A DNA stretch of 64,000 nucleotides, from NCBI GenBank assembly GCA_023548195.1, contig JAJHZJ010000419.1, positions 562,273 through 626,272 of the forward strand. Direction: 5' to 3'. A model generated the notes under the pieces. The model made no database searches. It was not told the origin of the DNA and was given only the letters and a program-made list of their open reading frames with translations. Shown piece after piece: positions 3,175 through 63,484 of the stretch (position 1 is the first letter of the stretch; the number at the start of each line of letters is the position of its first letter). A program made the position numbers and the translations under genes. This DNA comes from Bettongia penicillata ogilbyi (Eukaryota > Chordata > Mammalia > Diprotodontia > Potoroidae).

Positions 3175-5453
3175 CGCTTCTATCCCAAAAATGATTCTGA
3201 GGGAAATTATGGGTCTGGGTTGTAGAAGTGGAAGCCACTGGCCAGGCTGCTTCCCTGCCTCCCTGCCCGCCACTGCTACTATTTTAGTTTCTTCTCCACC
3301 TTCCCGGGGGTGCGGGAGGCCAGCCTGGCTGTGGATGCCTAGATAGCCCCGGCCGCCAGTCCCGGGTCCTACCAGCATTCAGCATGGACAGGGCAGTGGC
3401 AGCGGCAGTAAGAGAAGGAGAAGGAAGAGGAGGAGAAGGAGGAAGATGGCAGGATGACTGCTGGCCTGTATGTTACACTGTGACATCAGGTATACAATAC
3501 CTGGATATTCTGAAAATACAGAACCACAGTTTGTCATTCTCTCATGTATTACTATCAAGGAATCTGCACAAATAGGAGATCAGGCATAAAGCAGGGTGAT
3601 GAAAGGTGTTGATGATCTAGACTTTTTGTTGGGATGAAGCAATGGAAAAGCCAACTTACGCAACAAAGTGGTGAATCGGTCATGGTATAGTTGGAGATTG
3701 GGACTTGATGGCGAGATTTAGGGAACAAGTGATCTTTAAATACCTAAGTACAGAACCTGAAGATCATTATTTTCTTTTGACTGAACTTCTAAATACACCA
3801 GAAAACAGGGAATATATAGCTGAAATTATATTTGAATCCTTTAATGTTCCAGGCCTATGCATAGCTGTACAGGCTGTCTTTGCTTTAGCTGCAACTTGGA
3901 CATCAAGACAAATAGGAGAGCGGACACTGACTGGTACAGCTACAGACAATGGAGATGGTGCCACTCATGTCATTCCTGGAGCTAAAGGGTATATTTTTGG
4001 CAGCTGTATCAAGCACATTCCAATTGCTGGGAGAAATATAACATTTTATTCAGCAGTTATTGAGAGAATGAGAAGTAGGAATTCCTCCTGAACAATCCCT
4101 GGAAACAGCTAAGGCTGTTATAGCTATGTCTGCCCAGATTTAGTCAAAGAATTTAATAAGTATGTTACAGATGGGTCAAAGTGGATTAAACAGTATACTG
4201 AAATGAAGGCAATCCCAAAAAATGAATTTTTCATTGACATTGGTTATGAGCAGTTCCTGGGTCCAGAAAACTTCTTTCACCTAGAGTTTGCTAATCCAGA
4301 CTTCGCACAACCTATTTTAGAAGTAGTAGATGAGGTAACTCAGAATTGTCCCATCAATGTGAGATTTCCTCTCTACAAGAATATTGTCCTCTCTAGGGGT
4401 TCAACCATGTTCAGGGATTTTGGCCATAGACTACAATGGAATTTGAAAAGAACTGTTGATGCAAGGCTGAAAATAAGTGAAGAATTAAGTGGTGGTGACA
4501 GAAGCCCAAGCCTATTGATGTGCAAATCATTACACACCACATGCAGGGATATGCAGTATGGTTTGGGGGATCAGTGCTGGCTTCCACACCTAAGTTCTAC
4601 CAAGTATGCCACACCAAAAAGGCATATGAAGAAATTGGATGTGGTATTTGCCGCCACAACTCAATGTTCGGGGTGATGTCTTAATACTGACTTCATAGTT
4701 ATAACAGGGAGATGGGGAAGAGCTCATATTTCTGATTATCTGTTTTGTTAGGATGGCTGATATTATGATAGCAAACTGACTTGACATGGAAAAGGCCAAA
4801 TGTAATTCAACAGGAATATTTTAATATATGTATCAACATACGAATGTAGAAGAAAAGCAAAATGATTAAAAATGTTTTTCTGCAGATGATATTTGAATCT
4901 GTATGTAACAAAAAGAAGTGGGTTTTAGTTCTTTCTGAGACTGGATGTTTTGTATATTAGTGGATTATCCAAGATTTGATGGAATTTAATGGTATGTCAA
5001 TAGTTCTATTATGCTTGAATTGTACCCTTTAAAGTGTGTACAATGTGAGAGCTTGTTGTATTTCATACTTTTCTATACTTTGAGGAAAAGAATAACAAAA
5101 ACTTGTAGTTGTGGAAAAGAGAGATCACCTCTAAGGTAAATTTAAAACAAAAGCCTCATGACACTTGCTTACGTACTCATGTTATTCTAGTTATTAAATT
5201 TTCCATCATCCCAAAAAAAATATCTGGCTGTCTTTGCAAGTGTTTTTTGGAACTAAAACTAGTACCTTGGTGTTTTCTGAATACTCTCATTCTATTTCTT
5301 GCTTTAAAAGTAAAGATGAGATTGTTGGACCAGTAAAGAAAAAAAATAAAAGTTTTTTAAAAAAAAGGAAATTTTGGCAAAGAAATTGTGATCCTTTGAA
5401 TTTAAATATATACTACTATTTTTTTTCTCTATGATCATGTGTCTTTTGTTTTT

Positions 5454-25394: not shown

Positions 25395-25595
25395 ATGCCA
25401 ATGCTAATAATGTCCTTCCTTCCAAGCAATTTTTATTTAATCACCTTGTGTGCTTTTTCTCTTTCTCACTAACATGCAAACCTTTTAAGTGTAAGGTTTG
25501 TTTCATTCTTTCTATATTATCAATATTTGACATAAAACAGGAACATAATAAATACTTTGTGATAGATTAATTGATGAAGAATGTGCCATAATTTG
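25395..25595 (+). mobile_element. L2-type repeat interrupted by the provirus
   Basis: Aligns by eye with 22590-22840: 'ccaatgctaataatgtccttccttccaagcaa', 'ggtttgtttcattctttctat', 'aataaatactttgtgatagatta'. Its continuation 'gcccctgaattttcc' is found only after the 3' LTR, at 32609-32623, so the provirus split this copy. Confidence 0.7.
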
Positions 25596-25696
25596 TGTTA
25601 GGGGCCAAGCTCTGGACCGGCCTTGGGAGCTGGCTCCACCCTCAGGGAGCTGGCTCTGCCCTTAGGGAGGAACATGGGTGGGGCTCTGGCTGGGGA

Positions 25697-25702
25697 TATA
25701 AG
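25697..25702 (+). promoter_or_regulatory. LTR TATA box
   Basis: TATAAG in 'ggggatataaggagc', about 100 bp into the LTR and 63 bp before the AATAAA, the usual spacing for a retroviral U3/R promoter. The identical element is at 32239-32244. Confidence 0.75.
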
Positions 25703-25764
25703 GAGCTGTCGGGGAGGGATCGGGGGAGAGATGTAACCAAGAAAGAGATGTAGAGGACGCCATC

Positions 25765-25770
25765 AATAAA
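25765..25770 (+). terminator. LTR polyadenylation signal
   Basis: AATAAA in 'catcaataaagtgaag'. The copy in the 3' LTR (32307-32312) would be the functional one for genomic RNA 3' end formation. Confidence 0.75.
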
Positions 25771-26062
25771 GTGAAGAGCACTGACATCCTTGGGCGAGTG
25801 TGTAGTCATTGTTCCCTCCGTGGAGGAGGGGACAGCCCTGTCGCGCAAGCTAGGCCATACGGTCGCACGGCAGGGACCGGAGACGTCCGAAGACCTGGAG
25901 GAAAGGTTGCCCAAGCGAAGTCTGGGGTAAGGAAGTGGGCCCTGTGTTAGAGTGCCGCCTGGAATATTGGGCGAAGACCCCAGAGAGATTACCGCCTGGA
26001 ATATTGGGCGAGGCCACCTGGCTTAGTAGCCAAGTGAAGGCCGGGGATTAGCCCCGTGCAGC

Positions 26063-26080
26063 TGGCGCCCAACGTGGGGC
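26063..26080 (+). promoter_or_regulatory. Primer-binding site, tRNA-Lys type
   Basis: TGGCGCCCAACGTGGGGC begins 3 bp after the LTR. It is the 18-nt complement of the 3' end of tRNA-Lys(1,2), the primer used by MMTV-like and type D betaretroviruses. All 18 positions look intact. Confidence 0.95.
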
Positions 26081-26154
26081 AGCAAATTTGAGTACCGCTT
26101 GGAAGGACTACACAACCTCGCTGTTGAGCAGCGGGAAGCCGGAAAGGGATAATT

Positions 26155-26859
26155 ATGGGTCAGGGAAGTAGCATTCCGCTGATCCGGCCCGAGGATAAAG
26201 AAGTGCTGGCATGTCACCTGTATAAATTATGTAAAAAGGAGGCGATTCATCCTCATAGTAAGACATGCCGTAGCTTTGTTGAACACAATTGGGAGATAGT
26301 GAGCCAACAGATAGCCTCTTATGTGGATGCCACCCCTGGGTTGCTTGTTGAGACTGACTTTGTCACGTATGGGGTGGAAAAAGCAGCCCTTGTGGGCGCC
26401 CCGTGTCCAATTTGCTTGGCCACCGCTTGTGTGATACAAACGGGAGACTCCCTAGTGGAGATTTCTGACGAGGAGTCGAGACCCCCACCTACCGCTCTCC
26501 CTTTTTTATCTTTGGAGCATTGGCGGTCAGGGAGCTCAGGAGACAATCACGACCAGATAGGACAGAGAGGAAAGAGGGAGTTGGCGCAGACAGAAATTCA
26601 ACCAGGAAATACATCCAGAGTTGGCCCAGGGCCTGGATTTGTGGCGCAGCAAAAAATTTGCCCCAAGGCCTGGATTTGTGGCACAGCAAAAAATTTGCCC
26701 AGGATCTGTGGTGCAGTGACGAATTCAGTGGCCTGGATGTTCTTCCAGCCCTGGCACTCGACACATATCTATGGTGCAGTAAAAAGTTGCAAAAGTAAGT
26801 CTAAAAAAGGAATCTTGTACAGGAGAAAGTCTAGACAGGGAATCTTATACAAGGCTTAA
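26155..26859 (+). pseudogene. Truncated gag (matrix region)
   Basis: First ATG after the primer-binding site, opening a 234-codon frame. It begins MGQGSS, an N-myristoylation-type start expected of a retroviral matrix protein that targets the membrane. Residues 1-130 are plausible matrix. From about residue 155 the frame passes through short tandem repeats (26630-26720) with glycine/tryptophan-rich text and ends at a stop with no capsid major homology region and no CCHC zinc knuckle. A full betaretroviral Gag is normally several hundred residues longer, so this is a stump. Confidence 0.8.
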
Positions 26860-28408
26860 TTACACAGTGATAGAAAGTAAGCCAGAGTTATAATGTGTAC
26901 AGAGGATTTCTGACAATTTTTTCTCAGTTTTTGGATTCTTTTATTGTCTGTATATGTGTTCTGTCTTTACATGTTCTGTGTGCGTCTGTTTGTGAGTTAT
27001 TACAGTCAGCTCCATGGTAGCTGGACCTTGGAATGTTATCTCTTTTCCTCCCCCCTCTTCCCTTCTCTCTGATGGCTGCAGCATCAGGGAGAAGCATGGG
27101 AGAGAGAAAGAGAGGAACTACTCATATTATTTAGTTTATATGACTGCAAAAATGCAGTTTTGGATAAAAAATGCAAGGAATATATAAGTGCAGTTTTAAA
27201 GGGGCTTTAATCAAAGCCCATTAGAAAGACAACATGGATATGAAATTTAGGGAAAGCATAAAAGTTTTGGAAATTAATGGAAAGTTTTTGGTAAAACTCT
27301 CTCTCTCTCTTTCTTTACTTTCTAATCCTGGCCAGATTGTGAAAGTGGAGAGAAAGACAAGAGGAGATCAGAGGCAGGCTGATTAGCATTTTCATTATCT
27401 CATGCCTCATCTAAAAGAAAAGTTTTTGTATAATGAGAAATAACCAAAACATAGTTATTCTGGTCATAATTTAAGTGAAACATGTCACTCCTAATTGGAT
27501 GCCTAAAGCAGATCAGGATTTGTTATATCATTTGGCACTAAGGCAAATTGGAAAAATGCATATTAAAGAGACACCTCAACAGAGATAAAGCTTTTGAAAC
27601 TCTGCAGCAGAACGGAACAGACTTGGCGCCACTGGACAGTTGTCCAGAAGTCTACCCCCTTTGACTGATGAATTTCAAAAGTCCTCTTGTTCAAAGACCT
27701 TTTTAAGGAGTGGACACAGAAGTAAAATCTATTTGAGTAAATGTTAGAACCATTAAGATTTTTGCCCTGCAGTCCCAAATCATCATTCAGCTGGGTCTGC
27801 AGTGAATTGTATCTCTTATCATTCCAGATTAGATCTAGGGAAGAGAACTATCATTTTGAAGGTTTTCAACTAAAATTTTTATAAAAGTTTGGTGACTGTT
27901 AACAACAGAAAAAAATTTAAAACAGTTTTAAATTTTCCTTTTCAAAGTAATGTATCAATAAGTTAATATGTAACACTCTATAGAGCAGAAAAAAAAAATC
28001 TTGCTCTTCTAATCTCAACTTGTACTCATTCCCAGGCCCAATTGCAACTTTCCTACAAAGAACATCAGTATCTGCAGGAACATCAGGTTCCAGGGTCATA
28101 GTTCCTGAGTTCCCAGACCCAATTGCAACTTTTCTGCAGAGAATATCACTATCTGCAGGAACATCAGGTTATCATGTTCCTGAAGCTAGTTCCAAGCAAA
28201 AGTTAACTTTAGCATTTGAACTTATTAGCAACCTGATTTCTAAAGAATTTTTCTTCCAGAGTATAGGTAATCAGAATAGGAGAAACTAGCCTATGAAACA
28301 ATGATGTACATCTATTCAGTGGTAAGGTCTAAGTTTGAAACCCCCTATCTTAGATTCTACAAAGGTTGCAACTTTAAATGAGAAAAAGAAAGAATCACTG
28401 GAGTTTTT
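26860..28408 (+). other. Unassigned internal proviral sequence where capsid, protease and RT should be
   Basis: About 1.5 kb between the gag stump and RNase H. I find no CCHC knuckle, no DTG/DSG protease motif and no YxDD reverse transcriptase motif. A gag/pol-like but unproven fragment lies near 27490-27590. An 81-bp unit is tandemly duplicated in frame at 28031-28111 and 28112-28192. The 27010-27120 part is pyrimidine-rich then purine-rich. The normal content would need about 3.5 kb or more, so a large deletion or replacement occurred. Confidence 0.6.
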
Positions 28409-29112
28409 CATCAGAAACAAGGAATTATTGAGTGGGTACATTAAGCCCACATAAAGCACAGAGCCTGTGTGCCTTATCCTGTGCTAGTAGCCCAAGTAAT
28501 ACATGAGGCAGTGGAAAGAGTGAGGATGTTACTAAGACAGGAACCTCACACGATATATCCTATGTATACAGGTCAACAAATAGAGAACTGCATACAAGAC
28601 TTTGTGGAATGGCAGATATTGATCAATCACAATATTCAACATGGCCTCCCAATTCCTTTCGGCCAGCAATTTCCCACGTGGCCATGGTCTTGGGCTTAAA
28701 AAATGCTCTCCCTCACCAGTAAAGGAGTTGATGTTTTTACAGATGCAACCAAATTTTAGGGCACCTATGTATATTCCATCCACAAAGGAGATGCATAAAT
28801 TTAAAACAGCATTTAATTCTACACAGCAACATGAATTACATGCAATGTTGCAGGCATTATTGTATGTTAAGGAACCTTCCAATATCATCACAGATGGCAA
28901 ATGTACAGCACTATTGTTACCTAGATTACACTCAGCTTATATCCCTGATAGGGCAGAAAGTATTAAACAGATAACTATGGAAGTTCAATAGGCAATAAGG
29001 ACCAGAACAACAATATTTTATATTATACACATTCGGTCGCATTCTAATTTACCTGGACCACTGATCAAGGGTAATGAGAAGGCAGACAATGCACTTCAAA
29101 CATTTCATTCTA
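28409..29112 (+). pseudogene. Broken pol: RT connection and RNase H
   Basis: RNase H landmarks are visible in order but in different frames. A 'VDVFTDATKF' segment near 28727 holds the first catalytic Asp and is followed by a stop. 'QHELHAML' near 28830 holds the Glu, 'NIITDGK' near 28890 the next Asp, and 'HIRSHSNLPGPL...GNEKADN' near 29030-29090 the closing His/Asp. In a live virus this enzyme degrades the RNA strand of RNA-DNA hybrids. Frameshifts and stops rule out function. Confidence 0.85.
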
Positions 29113-30124
29113 CTGAATTGGCAAGACAAGCACACTCCAAATTACACTTGTCTGCATGGTCTTTAAGACATCTTTATGGTATTTCCAGACAAGAAGTTAG
29201 ACCTATAGTTAAGCAGTGTGTACAATGTGTTCCATTTTTACCCCCACCTTCTTGTTACCCTGTAAACCCTAAGGGTGATGGTCCAAATTCTATACGGCAA
29301 ATGGATGTTCCTCATTATCCATCATTTGGAAGAGCAAAATATATTGATGTTACTGTTGACACATTTTCAGGCTTTATAATGGCAACAGCCAAGTGCGGAG
29401 AAGCTGTTAGGGATGTGGGAGCACATCTCTTACATTGCTTGGCAAATCATGGAGTACCAAAAAGCATTAAACCAAAAAATCGTCCACCTTATATCAGTAA
29501 AGCCATTGAACGGTTCATGGTGGAATTTTCCATTTTGCGTGTCACTGGAATCCCCCATAATCCCACTGGTCAGGCTATAGTGGAACGAGCAACTCGCTCC
29601 CCGGACACCTACTTGCTTAAACAAAAAGGGGGAGTTGGACCAGGAGTTGATGATAAATTTACAATTGGCTGTTCAGCTGTTTATACTCTAAATTATTTAA
29701 AATTGTGTATATTCTAAATTGATGAAAAATTACAATTGGCTGTTTGGCTGTTTATACTCTGCATTATTTAAAATTCGATAATGATGGCTTATCGGCTGCT
29801 ATGAAATTCTTAACATTTCCTAATAAGGAGTCTGCAAAGAATGAATCAGCAATAACAAGTGCCCTGAAAGCAGCCAGTAAAGTAATGTGGCACGATGAGA
29901 ATAAAAACTGGTTTGGTCCTCATACAGTGTTAACGTGGGGAAAAGGGTATGTTTGTATTTTAACAGATGATAATGATAATAAAGAAGTTTGGGTTCCAGT
30001 GGAAAGGATAAGAGTGATAGAAGACAACCGCCAAGGTGGAGCGGTCACAGGGAGCAAGGAGGCGCTATCAGCGGCGAATGAAAAAACTTCTGGAGAAATT
30101 TACTCAACTAGGTCACGATGACTC
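29113..30124 (+). pseudogene. Broken pol: integrase
   Basis: The first frame (29118-29717) shows the zinc-binding H-H-C-C array ('AHSKLHLSAWSLRHLYG...KQCVQC'), then the core. The first Asp (IRQMDV) and the Glu (GQAIVERAT) are present, but the middle Asp is lost: the segment equivalent to TDNGP reads PKNRP near 29470. A stop follows a 71-bp duplication (29649-29790). The next frame (29744-30121) has the C-terminal DNA-binding part (VMWHDENKNWFGPHTVLTWGKGYV...VWVPVERIR). It would not catalyse integration. Confidence 0.88.
29617..29634 (+). other. Internal copy of the polypurine tract
   Basis: ttaaacaaaaagggggag inside integrase is identical over 18 bp to the sequence ending just before the 3' LTR (32119-32136). 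It encodes the LLKQKGG segment common to betaretroviral integrases. Central-tract function is speculation. Confidence 0.6.
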
Positions 30125-31624
30125 CTCTCATTCTTCTCGTACTTATCATGACACTCAACAACACTGCGTCCTTCAACCCAACACTAAAGGAACAACAGAT
30201 ATGGGCATTCCTCACAAATCCACCATGGTTAAGGGCCTGCTTACAATCTATTCACATGGAGGATACATGGGACAATAGTAGTTTGGTCAAACAAGGACTT
30301 TGTGGGACTTGCTCGTGGGATGCAATATAGACCATTTTGTAACTTACAAAAGATGAGAAATGTAACCCTTTGGCATCTGTATATAGGGTTTTTACCATTT
30401 GAGAATTGTCACACATGCACTTGACAGGAGACAGAATTGATTATGGGAAACCACACAGAAATGTTGTATTCATGTCACAATTTTGTATACTTGCCTGATG
30501 AAAAATATGCGCCAAATTTTCCTAGACAAATGTACATTAATTACAAGGGATATCCTGAAGTTAGAAGGCCTGTTCAGGAAATAGATAAAGTTATCTTAGT
30601 AATGGGAGGACAAACAGTGCAGGGAATGCCTGCTGTAGCATCACCAAGTAAATCTAACAACGTTACTTTAATGGGCAAAGTATGTCTAGGGAACAAATAT
30701 ATATATTTCTATGGGATAGAGACCAAAGATATAAATCAGAGGCATATCGGAACATGATGGGAATTTTCAATTTTACATGCCAGAATTGTTCTGCACAAGA
30801 ATGTATAAGACCAAAGACAGTAGGGAGAGTGTTTATTCTAACAAGACCTCGATATGCCATGACAGTAATTAAGGATAAAGGATGGTACGGAAATAAGTTC
30901 TACATATTTTGGACAAGCAATTAACCCCTATAACTACTAAAGTATGTGGATGTGTTTCTTGTGTTAGGAATCATGTTATTAGTAGAAGCTATTTTAGCAT
31001 CCACTGCATTAGCTGTATCTATCTCTAATACACACAACACAATAGTTCAAGCTTCTGAATTGCATTCCCTTATGAAAAATGTATTTGCAGGCTTTAAGCA
31101 ACAAGCAAAATAGTGAATTTTATGAAGCCATTCATACACTCCAAAAGGTAGCTGAATTCATTGGTGGAGAAGTGTTTATGTTACAGTTACAACACAAATT
31201 GCAATGTGATTATAGAATAATGCCTTTTGTTTGACTACGAAATTGTATAATGGGTCACAAGTCCAAAGGGAAGAAATTAGAGCTCAATTGAATGGGCTAA
31301 TTCCAGATCATGTCACTCTGGAAATCCAGAGATTAATTGAATTGGCAGAAGAATTAGATAAGGAAGCAGATGTTGATTTTGCCCCTGAACAAAAGGCTTC
31401 AAAAAATACCTCAATTCTTCGATAACTTAAGTTTATGAGGTGATGTAAAGACCTGTTTTTCAACTTTACTGATAGGTTTTGTAGTAGTATTGTTAGTACT
31501 GCTGCTTATGCCACTATGTATCAACCTTGCTTTGCGTAGTGTCCAGGACTCCCTAACATCCGGTAGGCAGAACATCACCGTCCTGAGGGAAAGATTGAGT
31601 CAAAACAACAAAGGGGGATTGTAA
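30020..31624 (+). pseudogene. Broken env (surface and transmembrane subunits)
   Basis: The start overlaps the end of pol in another frame, with a basic RRRYQRR stretch (near 30060) and then a hydrophobic leader-like MTPLILLVLIM from 30118. Surface-subunit fragments (30437-30757, 30682-30924) contain N-glycosylation sites and cysteines. The transmembrane part is spread over frames: a fusion-peptide-like hydrophobic run near 30970-31030, a helix region (VAEFIGGEVFMLQ near 31150), a membrane anchor (STLLIGFVVVLLVLLLMPLC, 31465-31530) and a short tail ending NNKGGL at 31624. I saw no CX6CC motif, so it is MMTV/HML-like and not of the gamma type. Many stops. Confidence 0.85.
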
Positions 31625-31640
31625 GGGAATGGCCAATCCC

Positions 31641-31850
31641 CAGCCTCTTGGACGGCATTCGCTGGTCACGGCTCAGGTAAACTGAGGGGAGACCAGTAGG
31701 GCATGAACAAGATGGCGCTGGGAGGAAGGATTCCCTTACAATGGAATTGCCAACCTCCAGCCTCTTGGACGGCATTCGCTGGTCACGGCTCAGGTAAACT
31801 GAGGGGAGACCGGTAGGGCATGAACAAGATGGTGCTGGGAGGAAGGATTC
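31641..31850 (+). repeat. 117-bp tandem duplication between env and the 3' LTR
   Basis: 'cagcctcttggacggcattc' starts at 31641 and again at 31758. The two units differ at only about 2 of the first 92 positions (ccagtagg/ccggtagg and ggcgctgg/ggtgctgg). Each includes a splice-donor-like CAGGTAAAC. Confidence 0.93.
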
Positions 31851-31951
31851 TGCCCCTGTTTTGCTCAAGGCTATTTTCCCGGGCTTTTCTGAGATCAAGG
31901 AAGCCAAAATATTTTTCTTTCTTGGGGCTACGTGTCTGCCCTGAGCAGTCC

Positions 31952-32122
31952 TGGTTTAAGGTAGAATTGCTGCCTTTTATTCTTCTTTGCCTCCTTCTCC
32001 CATGTTGCATTAGATGCTTTTGCGCTATGATAAGGCAGGCAATACTAGAAGCCAAAGCAGATTTGCGTACCCTCCTGTCCTCCCCCAAACTCCCTACCCC
32101 TTATGATACTACTCCTGTTTAA
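31952..32122 (+). pseudogene. Second env-tail-like segment
   Basis: The frame through this segment reads a hydrophobic anchor (LLPFILLCLLLPCCIRCFC) followed by a charged tail (MIRQAILEAKADLRTLLSS) and a stop inside the polypurine tract. The layout copies that of a retroviral TM anchor plus cytoplasmic tail, yet a TM anchor and stop already exist upstream at 31465-31624. I interpret it as the tail of a different env joined by recombination. It could also be chance hydrophobic coding. Confidence 0.5.
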
Positions 32123-32137
32123 ACAAAAAGGGGGAGA
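32119..32137 (+). promoter_or_regulatory. 3' polypurine tract
   Basis: aaacaaaaagggggaga directly abuts the TGTTAG of the 3' LTR. This is the plus-strand DNA primer site of retroviruses. Confidence 0.9.
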
Positions 32138-32602
32138 TGTTAGGGGCCAAGCTCTGGACCGGCCTTGGGAGCTGGCTCCACCCTCAGGGAGCTGGCTCTG
32201 CCCTTAGGGAGGAACATGGGTGGGGCTCTGGCTGGGGATATAAGGAGCTGTCGGGGAGGGATCGGGGGAGAGATGTAACCAAGAAAGAGATGTAGAGGAC
32301 GCCATCAATAAAGTGAAGAGCACTGACATCCTTGGGCGAGTGTGTAGTCATTGTTCCCTCCGTGGAGGAGGGGACAGCCCTGTCGCGCAAGCTAGGCCAT
32401 ACGGTCGCACGGCAGGGACCGGAGACGTCCGAAGACCTGGAGGAAAGGTTGCCCAAGCGAAGTCTGGGGTAAGGAAGTGGGCCCTGTGTTAGAGTGCCGC
32501 CTGGAATATTGGGCGAAGACCCCAGAGAGATTACCGCCTGGAATATTGGGCGAGGCCACCTGGCTTAGTAGCCAAGTGAAGGCCGGGGATTAGCCCCGTG
32601 CA
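32138..32602 (+). repeat. 3' LTR (465 bp)
   Basis: Same length as the 5' LTR and, reading base by base, I found no difference. TATA box at 32239-32244 and AATAAA at 32307-32312. Followed by the target duplication aatttg and then by the remainder of the interrupted repeat. Confidence 0.97.
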
Positions 32603-32833
32603 AATTTGGCCCCTGAATTTTCCATAATATCAACGTTGGAAAAATGAACAATTCTGAAAGTCTTAACTCTAATCAATAAAATGAGCAACCATGAATCTAG
32701 AGAACAGATGAAGAAGAATGCTGTCCACTTCTCAATGGCATGATGGACTAATAAAAAACATATTTTTGAATGCAGCCAACATGAAGATTGGTTTTGCTTG
32801 ACTATGCTTCTATGATTAAGGGATCTTTCTCAT

Positions 32834-48975: not shown

Positions 48976-50010
48976 ATGTCCAGAAAAGGGAAGAAAAATA
49001 AGACCATAGAAAGCTACTTTCTTGGGGAATAGATACTCCCATCTTTCATTTCTGATGACGAGGAACAATTCTTACCATCAGGGAAAGATGTGGAGGCCGG
49101 GGCCTCTCTATCCCAGACATCCAAGGTGGATGTCCGGTGGGCTCAGGCCATGGAAGAGCTCAAAAAGGATTTTGAAAATCAAATTAGACAAGTGGAGGAA
49201 AAACTGGGAAGAGAAATGAGAGAGATGCAAGAAAAGCATGAAAAACAGGTCAATATCTTGGTAAAGGAGACACAAAGGAGACAAAAAAATGCTGAAGAAA
49301 ATAACACCTTGAAAAATAGGCTCACTCAATTGGCAAAAGAGGTTCAAAAAACCAATGAGGAGAAGAATGCTTTCAAAACCAGAATTAGCCAAATGGAAAA
49401 AGAGATTCAAAAGCTCACTGAAGAAAATAGTTCTCTCAAAATTAGAATGGAACAGATGGAGGCTAATGACTTTCTGAGAAACCAAGAAATCACAAAACAA
49501 AACCAAAAGAATGAAAAAATGGAAGAGAATGTGAAATATCTCATTGGAAAAACAAGTGACCTGGAAAATAGATCCAGGAGAGACAATTTAAAAATTATGG
49601 GACTACCTGAAAGCCATGATCAAAAAAAGGGCCTAGACATCATCTTTCATAAAATTATCAAGGAAAACTGCCCTGAGATTCTAGAACCAAAGGGCAAAAT
49701 AAGTATTGAAGGAATCCATCGATCACCACCTGAAAGAGATCCAAAAAGAGAAACTCCTAGCAATATTGTGGCCAAATTCCAGAATTCCCAGGTCAAGGAG
49801 AAAATCTTGCAAGCAGCTAGAAAGAAACAATTCCAGTATTGTGGAAATGCAATCAAGATAACACAAGATCTAGCAGCTTCTACATTAAGAGATCAAAGGG
49901 TGAGAAATAGGATATTCCAGAAGTCAAAGGAACTAGGACTCAAACCAAGAATCACCTACCCAGAAAAACTGAGTATAATACTTCAGGGAAAAAAAATGAT
50001 CTTTCAATGA
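48976..50010 (+). pseudogene. L1-type ORF1 (RNA-binding chaperone), disrupted
   Basis: Starts ATG at 48976 (MSRKGKKNKTIESYFLGE) and meets TAG at codon 19, where the sister copy at 62.5 kb has CAG. The frame then stays open to 50010. Residues about 50-170 are a heptad-rich coiled coil used for trimerisation (EELKKDFENQIRQVEEKLG and onward). An RRM-type segment follows (SRRDNLKIMGLPES...SNIVAKFQNSQVKEKIL) and then the C-terminal domain (ITQDLAASTLRD...ITYPEKLS). A one-base insertion in the run near 49990 shifts the last part and gives an early stop (GKKMIFQ), losing about 30 residues relative to the sister copy. ORF1p coats LINE RNA; this copy is dead unless the first stop is read through. Confidence 0.92.
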
Positions 50011-61459: not shown

Positions 61460-62563
61460 TCATTCTTGTGTTTGAAAGTCAAATTTTTTTTTCAGCTCTG
61501 GTCTTTTCATCAAGAATGCTTGAAAGTCCTCTGTTTCATTGAAAGACCATATTTTCCCCTGAAGTATTATACTCAGTTTTGCTGGGTAGGTGATTCTTGG
61601 TTTGAGTCCTAGTTCCTTTGACTTCTGGAATATTCTATTCCATGCCCTTCAATCCCTTAATGTAGAAGCTGCTAGATCTTGTGTTATCCTGATTGTATTT
61701 CCACAACACTGAAATTGTTTCTTTCTAGCTGCTTGCAATATTTTCTCCTTGACCTGGGAATTCTGGAATTTGGCCACAATATTGCTAGGAGTTTCTCTTT
61801 TTGGATCTCTTTCAGGCAGTGATAGATAGATTCCTTGAATACTTATTTTGCCCTCTGGTTCTAGAATCTCAGGGCAGTTTTCCTTGATAATTTTATGAAA
61901 GATGATGCCTAGGCTCTTTTTTTGATCATGGCTTTCAGGTAGTCCCATAATTTTTAAATTGTCTCTCCTGGATCTATTTTCCAGGTCAGTTGTTTTTCCC
62001 ATGAGATATTTCACATTCTCTTCCATTTTTTCATTCTTTTGGTTTTGTTTTATGATTTCTTGGTTTCTCAGAAAGTCATTAGACTCCATCTGTTCCATTC
62101 TAATTTTGAGAGAACTATTTTCTTCAGTGAGCTTTTGAACCTCTTTTTCCATTTGGCTAATTCTGCTTTTGAAAGCATTCTTCTCCTCATTGGCTTTTTG
62201 AACCTCTTTTGCCAATTGTGTGAGCCTATTTTTCAAGGTGTTATTTTCTTCAGCAATTTTTTGGGTCTCCTTTAGCAAGGTATTGACCCGTTTTTCATGC
62301 TTTTCTTGCATCTCTCTCATTTCTCTTCCCAGTTTTTCCTCCACCTGTCTAACTTGTTTTTCAAAATCCTTTTTGAGCTCTTCCATGGCCTGAGCCCACC
62401 GGACATCCACCTCGGATGTCTGGGATAGAGAGGCCCCGACCTCCACGTCCCTCACTGATGGCAAGCATTTTACTTCCTCATCAGAAATGAAGGGAGGAAG
62501 GAACATCTGTTCCCCAAGAAAGTAGCTCTCTATGGTCTTATTTTGCTTCCTTTTTCTGGGCAT
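61460..62563 (-). pseudogene. L1-type ORF1 with one internal stop
   Basis: From ATG at 62563 the frame reaches a TGA at codon 305 (61649-61651) and then stays in phase to the natural stop at 61460-61462, 368 codons in all. No frameshift is needed. N-terminus MPRKRKQNKTIESYFLGEQ, a long heptad-rich coiled coil (about residues 55-175), an RRM-like block (RRDNLKIMGLPES) and a C-terminal domain. In the other copy the residue at the internal stop is Gln (CAA). Truncation at 304 residues removes most of the C-terminal domain, needed for nucleic-acid binding in the L1 family. It is the better preserved of the two ORF1 copies. Confidence 0.92.
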
Positions 62564-63484
62564 TTTCCCGGCCAGTTACTTGACTTCTGAGATTCCTGTC
62601 CACCCCTGCCTAGATCTGCCCAGCTAGTGCTTGGTGTCTGAGATTCAAATGCTGCTTCTCAGTCTCAGGGCTTTCAGCAGTGGGCGGTGCTGCTATTCAA
62701 TGTGAGCTTAAGTTCTGGTGCTCAGGTGGAGGCAGGGCTGCCTCGCAGGCTCAGTTCCCTCAGGGGCTTTATGCAGAGACCTTCAGTAATGGAGAGGGTG
62801 GGGGCAGGGCCATCTCCCAGGCTCAGTTCCCTCGGGGGGGTTTATGCAGAGACCTTTAGTAATGGCCCTGAGCTCCTGTTTGCTGCTCTGGGAGTCTCAG
62901 GCCACTGCCGCTGCCTCTGCCACTGCCTTTGCTACTCCCTCTGCCGCTGCCTCTCGAGGGGGCACGAGTCAGGGAGACACCCCGCTCCCCTCTCGGCCAG
63001 TCCAGAAGTCTCTCTCACTGACCTGTAGCGCCTGTGGGTGGAGGGACCTTCCCGGGCGCCAGAGTTTCCGTCCCTGAAACCTGCTTGGATCTGCTCCTCT
63101 GGGGCCGTGAGGCCAGGGCTGGACCAGGGTGGGCTCTGCTGTTCGGAGCGCCATGGACCCCTGGGGATGGCTTTCCAGGGCTCTCTGGAATGGAAATCTC
63201 CTCCAGTGCATTGGTGCGCAGCTTGCTCTGCTCCAGAATTTGTGGGGAGTTCTTTTTACAGGAAATTTCTGGGCTGTGGATTCGGAGCTAGCATACGTGA
63301 GTCTTTCTACTCTGCCATCTTCAACATGTACTTTTCAAGAATAAAATTTGAAAAATGTAATAATAAAATGAGGTAATGTTGTAAAGGACTGTACAAACTT
63401 TAAAGAGTCATCTAAGTGCTTACAATTATCATTACATCTCAAAGAAAGGAATACTATATGTACTTTGGTTTCCATGTTAGATAT

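What the first reader, a model, noticed from the sequence alone, without database searches (positions are those of the whole stretch)
25590..32608. Provirus with apparently identical LTRs but a ruined interior
Seen: the two 465-bp LTRs look base-for-base the same, and the 6-bp target duplication is perfect. Yet RNase H, integrase and env each carry several stops and frameshifts and much of gag-pol is missing. LTRs are identical at insertion and diverge with age, so most interior damage must predate insertion. Inference: an already defective genome was copied by a helper retrovirus in trans, making this one member of a non-autonomous family. Alternatives: LTR gene conversion, or an assembly artefact.
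Basis: partly seen in the sequence, partly recalled or inferred. Interest (0 to 1): 0.8.

Follow-up and report, generated by a model that had tools for sequence, protein, structure and literature searches.

The report
Defective retrovirus copied by intact relatives
This marsupial provirus is one recent copy of a large family of gene-dead retroviral elements that were probably spread by coding relatives in the same genome, a known kind of genomic parasite found here in a critically endangered animal.

Summary
The LTRs (25596-26060, 32138-32602) are identical at 465 of 465 positions, and the 6-bp target duplications match. The interior is ruined. By size and contig number the host assembly is the woylie, Bettongia penicillata ogilbyi.

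Twelve further copies carry the same replacement of gag capsid to RT by an unrelated 1.6-kb segment. The 40 scored genome matches to that segment, the window included, are 93-100% identical, and the 40 scored leader-gag matches all carry it. Copies differ from each other by 1.9% in the LTR, but by 0.2-0.3% between their own two LTRs, and are segmental mosaics.

The genome also holds class II elements with open pol frames. In one such group (908-923 aa), 10 of 10 correctly placed 5' pieces share R-U5, leader or 5' gag with the window. This is the MusD/ETn or bovine ERVK C-type/D-type arrangement in a potoroid marsupial. Mobilisation in trans is inferred, not shown.

The parts
25590..25595 (.). 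5' target site duplication AATTTG
25596..26060 (+). 5' LTR, 465 bp; TATA-like TATAAG at 25697, AATAAA at 25765
26063..26080 (+). primer binding site, fits tRNA-Lys1,2 (name recalled, not from a call)
   Evidence: same 18-mer exact in L063
26155..26859 (+). truncated Gag ORF, 234 aa, matrix-like by position; still open in 10 of 13 copies
   Evidence: gag homology to a pol-open relative runs to about 26663; no Pfam gag match
26664..28440 (+). replacement segment (analysed as 26860-28440; left edge inferred): no protein domain, G+C 0.36, CpG obs/exp 0.06; in all copies examined
28445..28988 (+). pol remnant: RT connection (by eye only) and RNase H, two frames, stop at 28989
28992..30118 (+). integrase remnant in two pieces with internal imperfect repeat 29647-29775
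30112..31624 (+). env remnant in short pieces; 31216-31422 resembles ERV-K TM, the rest placed by position
31623..31850 (+). 117-bp tandem repeat (94.6% alike); about one unit in L034 and three in L035
32125..32137 (+). polypurine tract AAAAAGGGGGAGA
32138..32602 (+). 3' LTR, identical to the 5' LTR
32603..32608 (.). 3' target site duplication AATTTG

Best explanation
The provirus is one recent insertion of a non-autonomous class II (betaretrovirus-like) element family of the woylie. Shown: it keeps the parts that act in cis (LTRs, primer site, leader, 5' gag, polypurine tract), while gag capsid, protease and most RT are replaced by a 1.6-kb segment and its pol and env are dead. The same defective genome occurs at many sites with young LTR pairs. 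Inferred: its RNA is packaged and reverse transcribed by Gag-Pol of coding relatives that share R-U5, leader and 5' gag, and it recombines with them and with its siblings by template switching. The LTRs are identical because they were regenerated at this last transposition; the interior was already broken in the RNA that was copied.
For: (1) The replacement segment is in 12 of 12 fetched copies; the 40 scored matches to it, window included, are 93-100% identical; the 40 scored leader-gag matches, window included, carry it. (2) Nine LTR pairs with a perfect 6-bp TSD have 8 substitutions in 4199 aligned bases, gaps set aside, against a between-copy mean of 1.9% (55 pairs of 11 5' LTRs). (3) The two LTRs of one copy are sisters in the LTR tree in 9 of 11; the two exceptions lack a TSD. 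(4) Divergence from the window is uneven along the element for all 12 copies (chi-square p 2e-4 to 9e-19), and the closest sibling changes by segment, as expected from recombination of co-packaged RNAs. (5) 50 of 59 scored class II pol matches in this genome have no stop (3781 candidates). Ten of 10 correctly placed 5' pieces of one group match the window over R-U5, leader and/or 5' gag; one has the leader 94/94 and R-U5 97.8% identical. Two 3' pieces match the stretch before the 3' LTR at 75%.
Against: No copy was seen to move and no helper protein was tested. For the pol-open relatives only pol was checked for stops; their gag, pro and env were not. One of 14 stop triplets is shared by only 4 of 11 copies, and four env indels differ from all 12 fetched copies. 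The copies were picked for LTR similarity to the window, so they are not a random sample. None of the 40 scored leader-gag matches is a coding element.
Confidence: 0.9

Rival explanations
1. An old provirus whose LTRs were made identical by gene conversion between its own two LTRs.
For: Conversion between LTRs is a known caution for LTR dating (PMC12789523, passages). In L033 and L039 the two LTRs are not sisters in the tree.
Against: Young LTR pairs are the rule in the sample: 0-3 differences in nine of nine TSD-bearing copies, so conversion would have to strike nearly every copy while leaving 2% between copies. Interior defects are shared between separate insertions, which in-place decay cannot explain.
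Confidence: 0.05
2. Assembly or polishing artefact that copied one LTR over the other.
For: The assembly was polished with short reads and its authors warn of possible scaffolding error (PMC9650285, passages); one locus is held twice in conflicting form (L033/L035).
Against: HiFi libraries of 15-20 kb can span a 7-kb element with flanks; other copies keep 1-6 LTR differences; the window's 5' LTR differs from the nearest of ten other 5' LTRs by 7 of 465.
Confidence: 0.04
3. The family is helped not by the LTR-sharing group but by another class II element or by an exogenous virus now gone.
For: None of the 40 scored leader-gag matches is a coding element; other open pol groups exist, and one sampled piece of another group shares gag start at 71% and LTR patches (L062).
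Against: One open-pol group shares R-U5, leader and 5' gag, up to an identical leader. The five other groups, one piece each, share less.
Confidence: 0.25

Closest known systems
Bovine ERVK[2-1-LTR] C-type / D-type pair (PMC10924933, passages read)
   Same: Class II, Lys primer, about 6.8-7 kb defective form with a swapped central segment beside a coding-competent form; shared 5' gag; mosaic copies; defective form abundant
   Different: Different host. There de novo germline insertions were measured; here only the genome record is available. Sequences were not compared
Mouse MusD / ETn (PMC6466679, passages)
   Same: Non-coding element with traces of class II homology beside a coding progenitor; helper role of MusD shown in the mouse
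   Different: The woylie family keeps long dead pol and env remnants; sequences were not compared
Koala KoRV / recKoRV with PhER (PMC5696478, passages)
   Same: Marsupial, defective genome multiplied beside a competent virus; PhER is about 8 kb with 478-bp repeats and no coding capacity
Kangaroo endogenous retrovirus KERV-1/MERVK1 (PMC5711953, PMC2736999, passages)
   Same: Related to HERV-K and MMTV, macropodiform host, 5-6 bp target duplications
   Different: Published KERV LTR primer sites (PMC3576234, passages) are absent from this LTR: best match 10 of 24 and 11 of 25 mismatches

Membership tests
Class II (betaretrovirus-like) ERV | pol of class II type | tested here: met
   Integrase best PDB hit 5cz2_A, E 5e-41 (that this is MMTV integrase is recalled); homologues include proteins named as ERV-K pol; no pol tree was built
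Class II (betaretrovirus-like) ERV | tRNA-Lys primer site and 6-bp target duplication | tested here: met
   tRNA name recalled
Non-autonomous ERV family mobilised in trans (ETn-like, D-type-like) | many insertions sharing one defective interior | tested here: met
Non-autonomous ERV family mobilised in trans (ETn-like, D-type-like) | young LTR pairs despite dead genes | tested here: met
Non-autonomous ERV family mobilised in trans (ETn-like, D-type-like) | relative in the same genome that shares cis sequences and has an open pol | tested here: met
Non-autonomous ERV family mobilised in trans (ETn-like, D-type-like) | that relative is fully coding-competent (gag, pro, pol) | not tested
   only pol was checked for stops
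Non-autonomous ERV family mobilised in trans (ETn-like, D-type-like) | movement depends on helper proteins | not testable with these tools
   needs observed de novo insertions or a laboratory assay
KERV-1 | KERV LTR sequence | tested here: not met
   primer sites absent
PhER | PhER LTR and interior sequence | not tested
   no PhER sequence at hand

The most novel reading that the evidence does not exclude
The replacement segment is captured host DNA rather than old retroelement (G+C 0.36 like the host, CpG obs/exp 0.06, no domain in six frames), and the truncated Gag ORF, open in 10 of 13 copies although its DNA is among the most divergent parts, is kept because its product or RNA acts in cis to win packaging, as reported for mouse IAP 1-delta-1 (PMC6466679, passages).
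Probability: 0.2. Interest if true: 0.65.

Novelty: new member of a known kind. Interest (0 to 1): 0.5.

Why it matters
It adds a marsupial case to the pattern that PMC10924933 calls striking (passages): three ERV pairs in cattle, mouse and koala each with the outer ends of a competent element and a foreign centre. A fourth pair lets one ask which outer parts are always kept, a test of what copying in trans requires. The woylie genome holds many open class II pol frames and a young parasite that shares its ends with one such group, so competition between the two could be followed in a living, threatened species. My library searches showed no description of this family, judged from titles and abstract starts; in PMC11334065, which surveyed the woylie, the words 'non-autonomous' and 'in trans' do not occur in the main text.

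Tried and rejected
IMG/VR scans with an LTR word and with the integrase gave no relative. The gag piece found no homologous protein. Rfam and tRNA scans were empty. Koala was my first guess for the host; assembly size and contig number point to the woylie instead. Selection on the gag ORF: dN/dS 0.75 in the matrix part, within the range of the two wrong frames (0.63, 0.99), so not shown. Of the 30 LTR loci with flanking DNA (two of them the window's own), 23 match the window's interior and 7 (L009, L012, L013, L018, L024, L026, L030) match none and look like solo LTRs; ten further scored LTRs were not examined there. A host source for the replacement segment could not be sought further, because family copies fill the scored list. 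The integrase repeat is of variable length among copies, so I do not use it as a shared lesion. Low CpG is not proof of host origin: the RNase H remnant is also low (0.14).
Full report
WHAT IS THERE. The window carries a 7.0-kb provirus at 25590-32608. Its two LTRs agree at all 465 positions, and the flanking 6-bp duplications are both AATTTG. The LTRs begin TG and end CA. A primer site fitting tRNA-Lys1,2 (recalled) lies at 26063-26080 and a polypurine tract at 32125-32137, right before the 3' LTR. So the parts that act in cis look sound.

The interior is not sound. A Gag ORF starts at 26155 and runs 234 codons; it has no Pfam gag match but shares DNA homology with gag of a pol-open relative up to about 26663. 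What follows, to about 28440, has no Pfam match in any of six frames. Its composition is host-like: G+C 0.36 and CpG observed/expected 0.06, against 0.16 for the whole window and 0.54 for the LTR; the RNase H remnant is low too, 0.14. Then come dead pieces of RNase H and integrase, the integrase with best PDB hit 5cz2_A (MMTV, recalled), and env pieces, one of which resembles ERV-K TM weakly (E 0.006). No protease and no RT domain was found in the pieces searched.

HOST. The window lies in a genome of 3,393,482,086 bases in 1116 contigs. The published woylie assembly is 3.39 Gbp in 1116 scaffolds, made from PacBio HiFi libraries of 15-20 kb and polished with linked reads (PMC9650285, passages; also a table in PMC11334065, passage). 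I take the host to be the woylie; the tool does not name it.

OTHER COPIES. The LTR search gave 953 first-look candidates; 40 full or nearly full matches were scored, all at 96% or more, two of them the window's own. Twelve stretches with two LTRs were fetched; one of them (L042) cuts off part of its 5' LTR. All 12 interiors align to the window at 96.2-97.4% and carry the same replacement segment. L033 and L035 share a left flank and are probably one locus held twice, so the 12 stand for 11 loci; a check of the flanks of the 11 paired copies found no further pair alike. A search with the replacement segment gave 1972 candidates; the 40 scored, window included, are 93-100% identical. A search with leader plus 5' gag gave 702 candidates, 40 scored, at 92-100%. 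Of these 40, 23 (window included) were already known to carry the segment, and I probed the DNA downstream of the other 17: 17 of 17 carry it. The candidate numbers are not copy counts. Two length forms exist; the long one has roughly 220-240 bp more near window 28380.

AGE. In nine copies with a perfect TSD, the window included, the two LTRs differ at 0-3 sites, 8 of 4199 in all with gaps set aside. With the koala pedigree rate of 1.6e-9 (PMC12789523, passages) that is about 0.6 My on average; with 4.5e-9 it is 0.2 My. For the window copy alone, zero differences give a 95% upper bound of 2.0 or 0.7 My. L033 (1 difference) and L039 (6) lack a matching TSD and were left out of the nine; over all 11 pairs the mean is 0.27%. 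L035 and L042 were not paired. Between copies the 5' LTRs differ by 1.9% on average (55 pairs of 11 copies). The shared damage is therefore older than the insertions.

HOW MUCH OF THE DAMAGE IS SHARED. Of 14 stop triplets that end the window's reading pieces, 10 occur in every comparable copy, 3 in all but one, and one in 4 of 11. Some of these stops are out of the true frame and would be shared anyway, so the shared replacement is the better evidence. Against a simple reading, four env indels (three frame-changing) differ from all 12 copies. A 13th copy (L044) shares two of them, a 14th (L043) none. Three further indels elsewhere differ from 10 or more of the 12. These changes belong to this copy's own lineage. 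Also, at 37 of 6055 comparable sites all other copies agree on a base that the window lacks.

MOSAICS. The difference between the window and each other copy is uneven along the element: for L031, 2 of 466 in RNase H but 37 of 539 in leader plus gag (chi-square p 7e-17; range over 12 copies 2e-4 to 9e-19). The nearest sibling changes from segment to segment. This is what template switching between co-packaged RNAs would produce.

A CODING RELATIVE. A class II pol protein gave 3781 candidates and 59 scored matches in this genome; 50 of the 59 have no stop inside. I took 2-kb pieces upstream of one member from each of six groups of that list. One matches the window closely: R-U5 at 97.8%, the leader at 94 of 94 bases, the primer site exact and the first 140 bases of gag at 92%. 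The five others share less; one of them has LTR patches and gag start at 71%. Ten more 5' pieces of the first group were fetched; one was misplaced by my error, and the other nine all match over R-U5, leader and/or 5' gag at 74-98% depending on segment. So 10 of 10 correctly placed pieces match; 11 of the 12 rows of that group were sampled, and 11 of the 12 have no stop in pol. Two 3' pieces match the stretch before the LTR at 75%, and one has R-U5 at 97.5%. In the two pieces tested, pol and env DNA of this group matches the family's remnant only over a patch of integrase, so I infer that the family's centre, pol and env come from another or older lineage. Partial LTR pairs of two members differ at 2 of 409 and 5 of 402 sites, so that group is fairly young as well. 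I did not check whether any member is intact throughout, and I single out none.

READING. The outer parts match a pol-open lineage and the centre is foreign and dead: the arrangement described for bovine ERVK[2-1-LTR] C and D types, mouse MusD and ETn, and KoRV and recKoRV (PMC10924933, passages; PMC6466679, passages). The best explanation is copying in trans. The genome record shows the family, its youth, the shared defect, the mosaics and a plausible helper group. It does not show the act of mobilisation.

GAG ORF. The frame is open in the window and 9 of 12 other copies (234 codons, 250 in one; three are broken early), while random substitutions at the observed numbers would give a stop in 62-86% of cases. 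The copies are related, so this is not a clean test, and dN/dS gives no support. Selection on it remains an open idea.

Noticed in passing
L035 (G000:C685:4682150-4689950) and L033 (G000:C1071:832350-840100): Same left flank, so probably one locus held twice; L035 ends in an inverted 3' LTR yet has a perfect TSD (ATGGAG), L033 ends in a normal LTR with an unrelated right flank and no TSD. Aberrant integration, rearrangement or misassembly.
   Followed up: partly
L033, L035, L039, L041, L042: A 69-70 bp tandem repeat of the U5 end makes some LTRs 533-678 bp long, and the two LTRs of L039 and of L041 differ in unit number.
   Followed up: partly
G000:C369:1637302-1644557: Two leader-gag copies 6.7 kb apart on one strand: possibly a tandem provirus sharing an LTR.
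   Followed up: no
whole genome G000: 50 of 59 scored class II pol matches (of 3781 candidates) have no stop codon: many open betaretrovirus-like pol frames in one genome; no other genome was compared.
   Followed up: partly
window 3675-4676: Two reading pieces with actin domain, the second best matched to actin-related protein 3: probably a broken retrocopy.
   Followed up: no
window 49033-50010 and 61649-62575: Two L1 ORF1-like frames in opposite orientation, within repeats about 92% identical over 2.4 kb.
   Followed up: no
window 29600-29640 and 32112-32137: In a pol-open relative the integrase region carries a run resembling the terminal polypurine tract (92% over 25 bases), perhaps a central polypurine tract; the window's own integrase region aligns there.
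   Followed up: no
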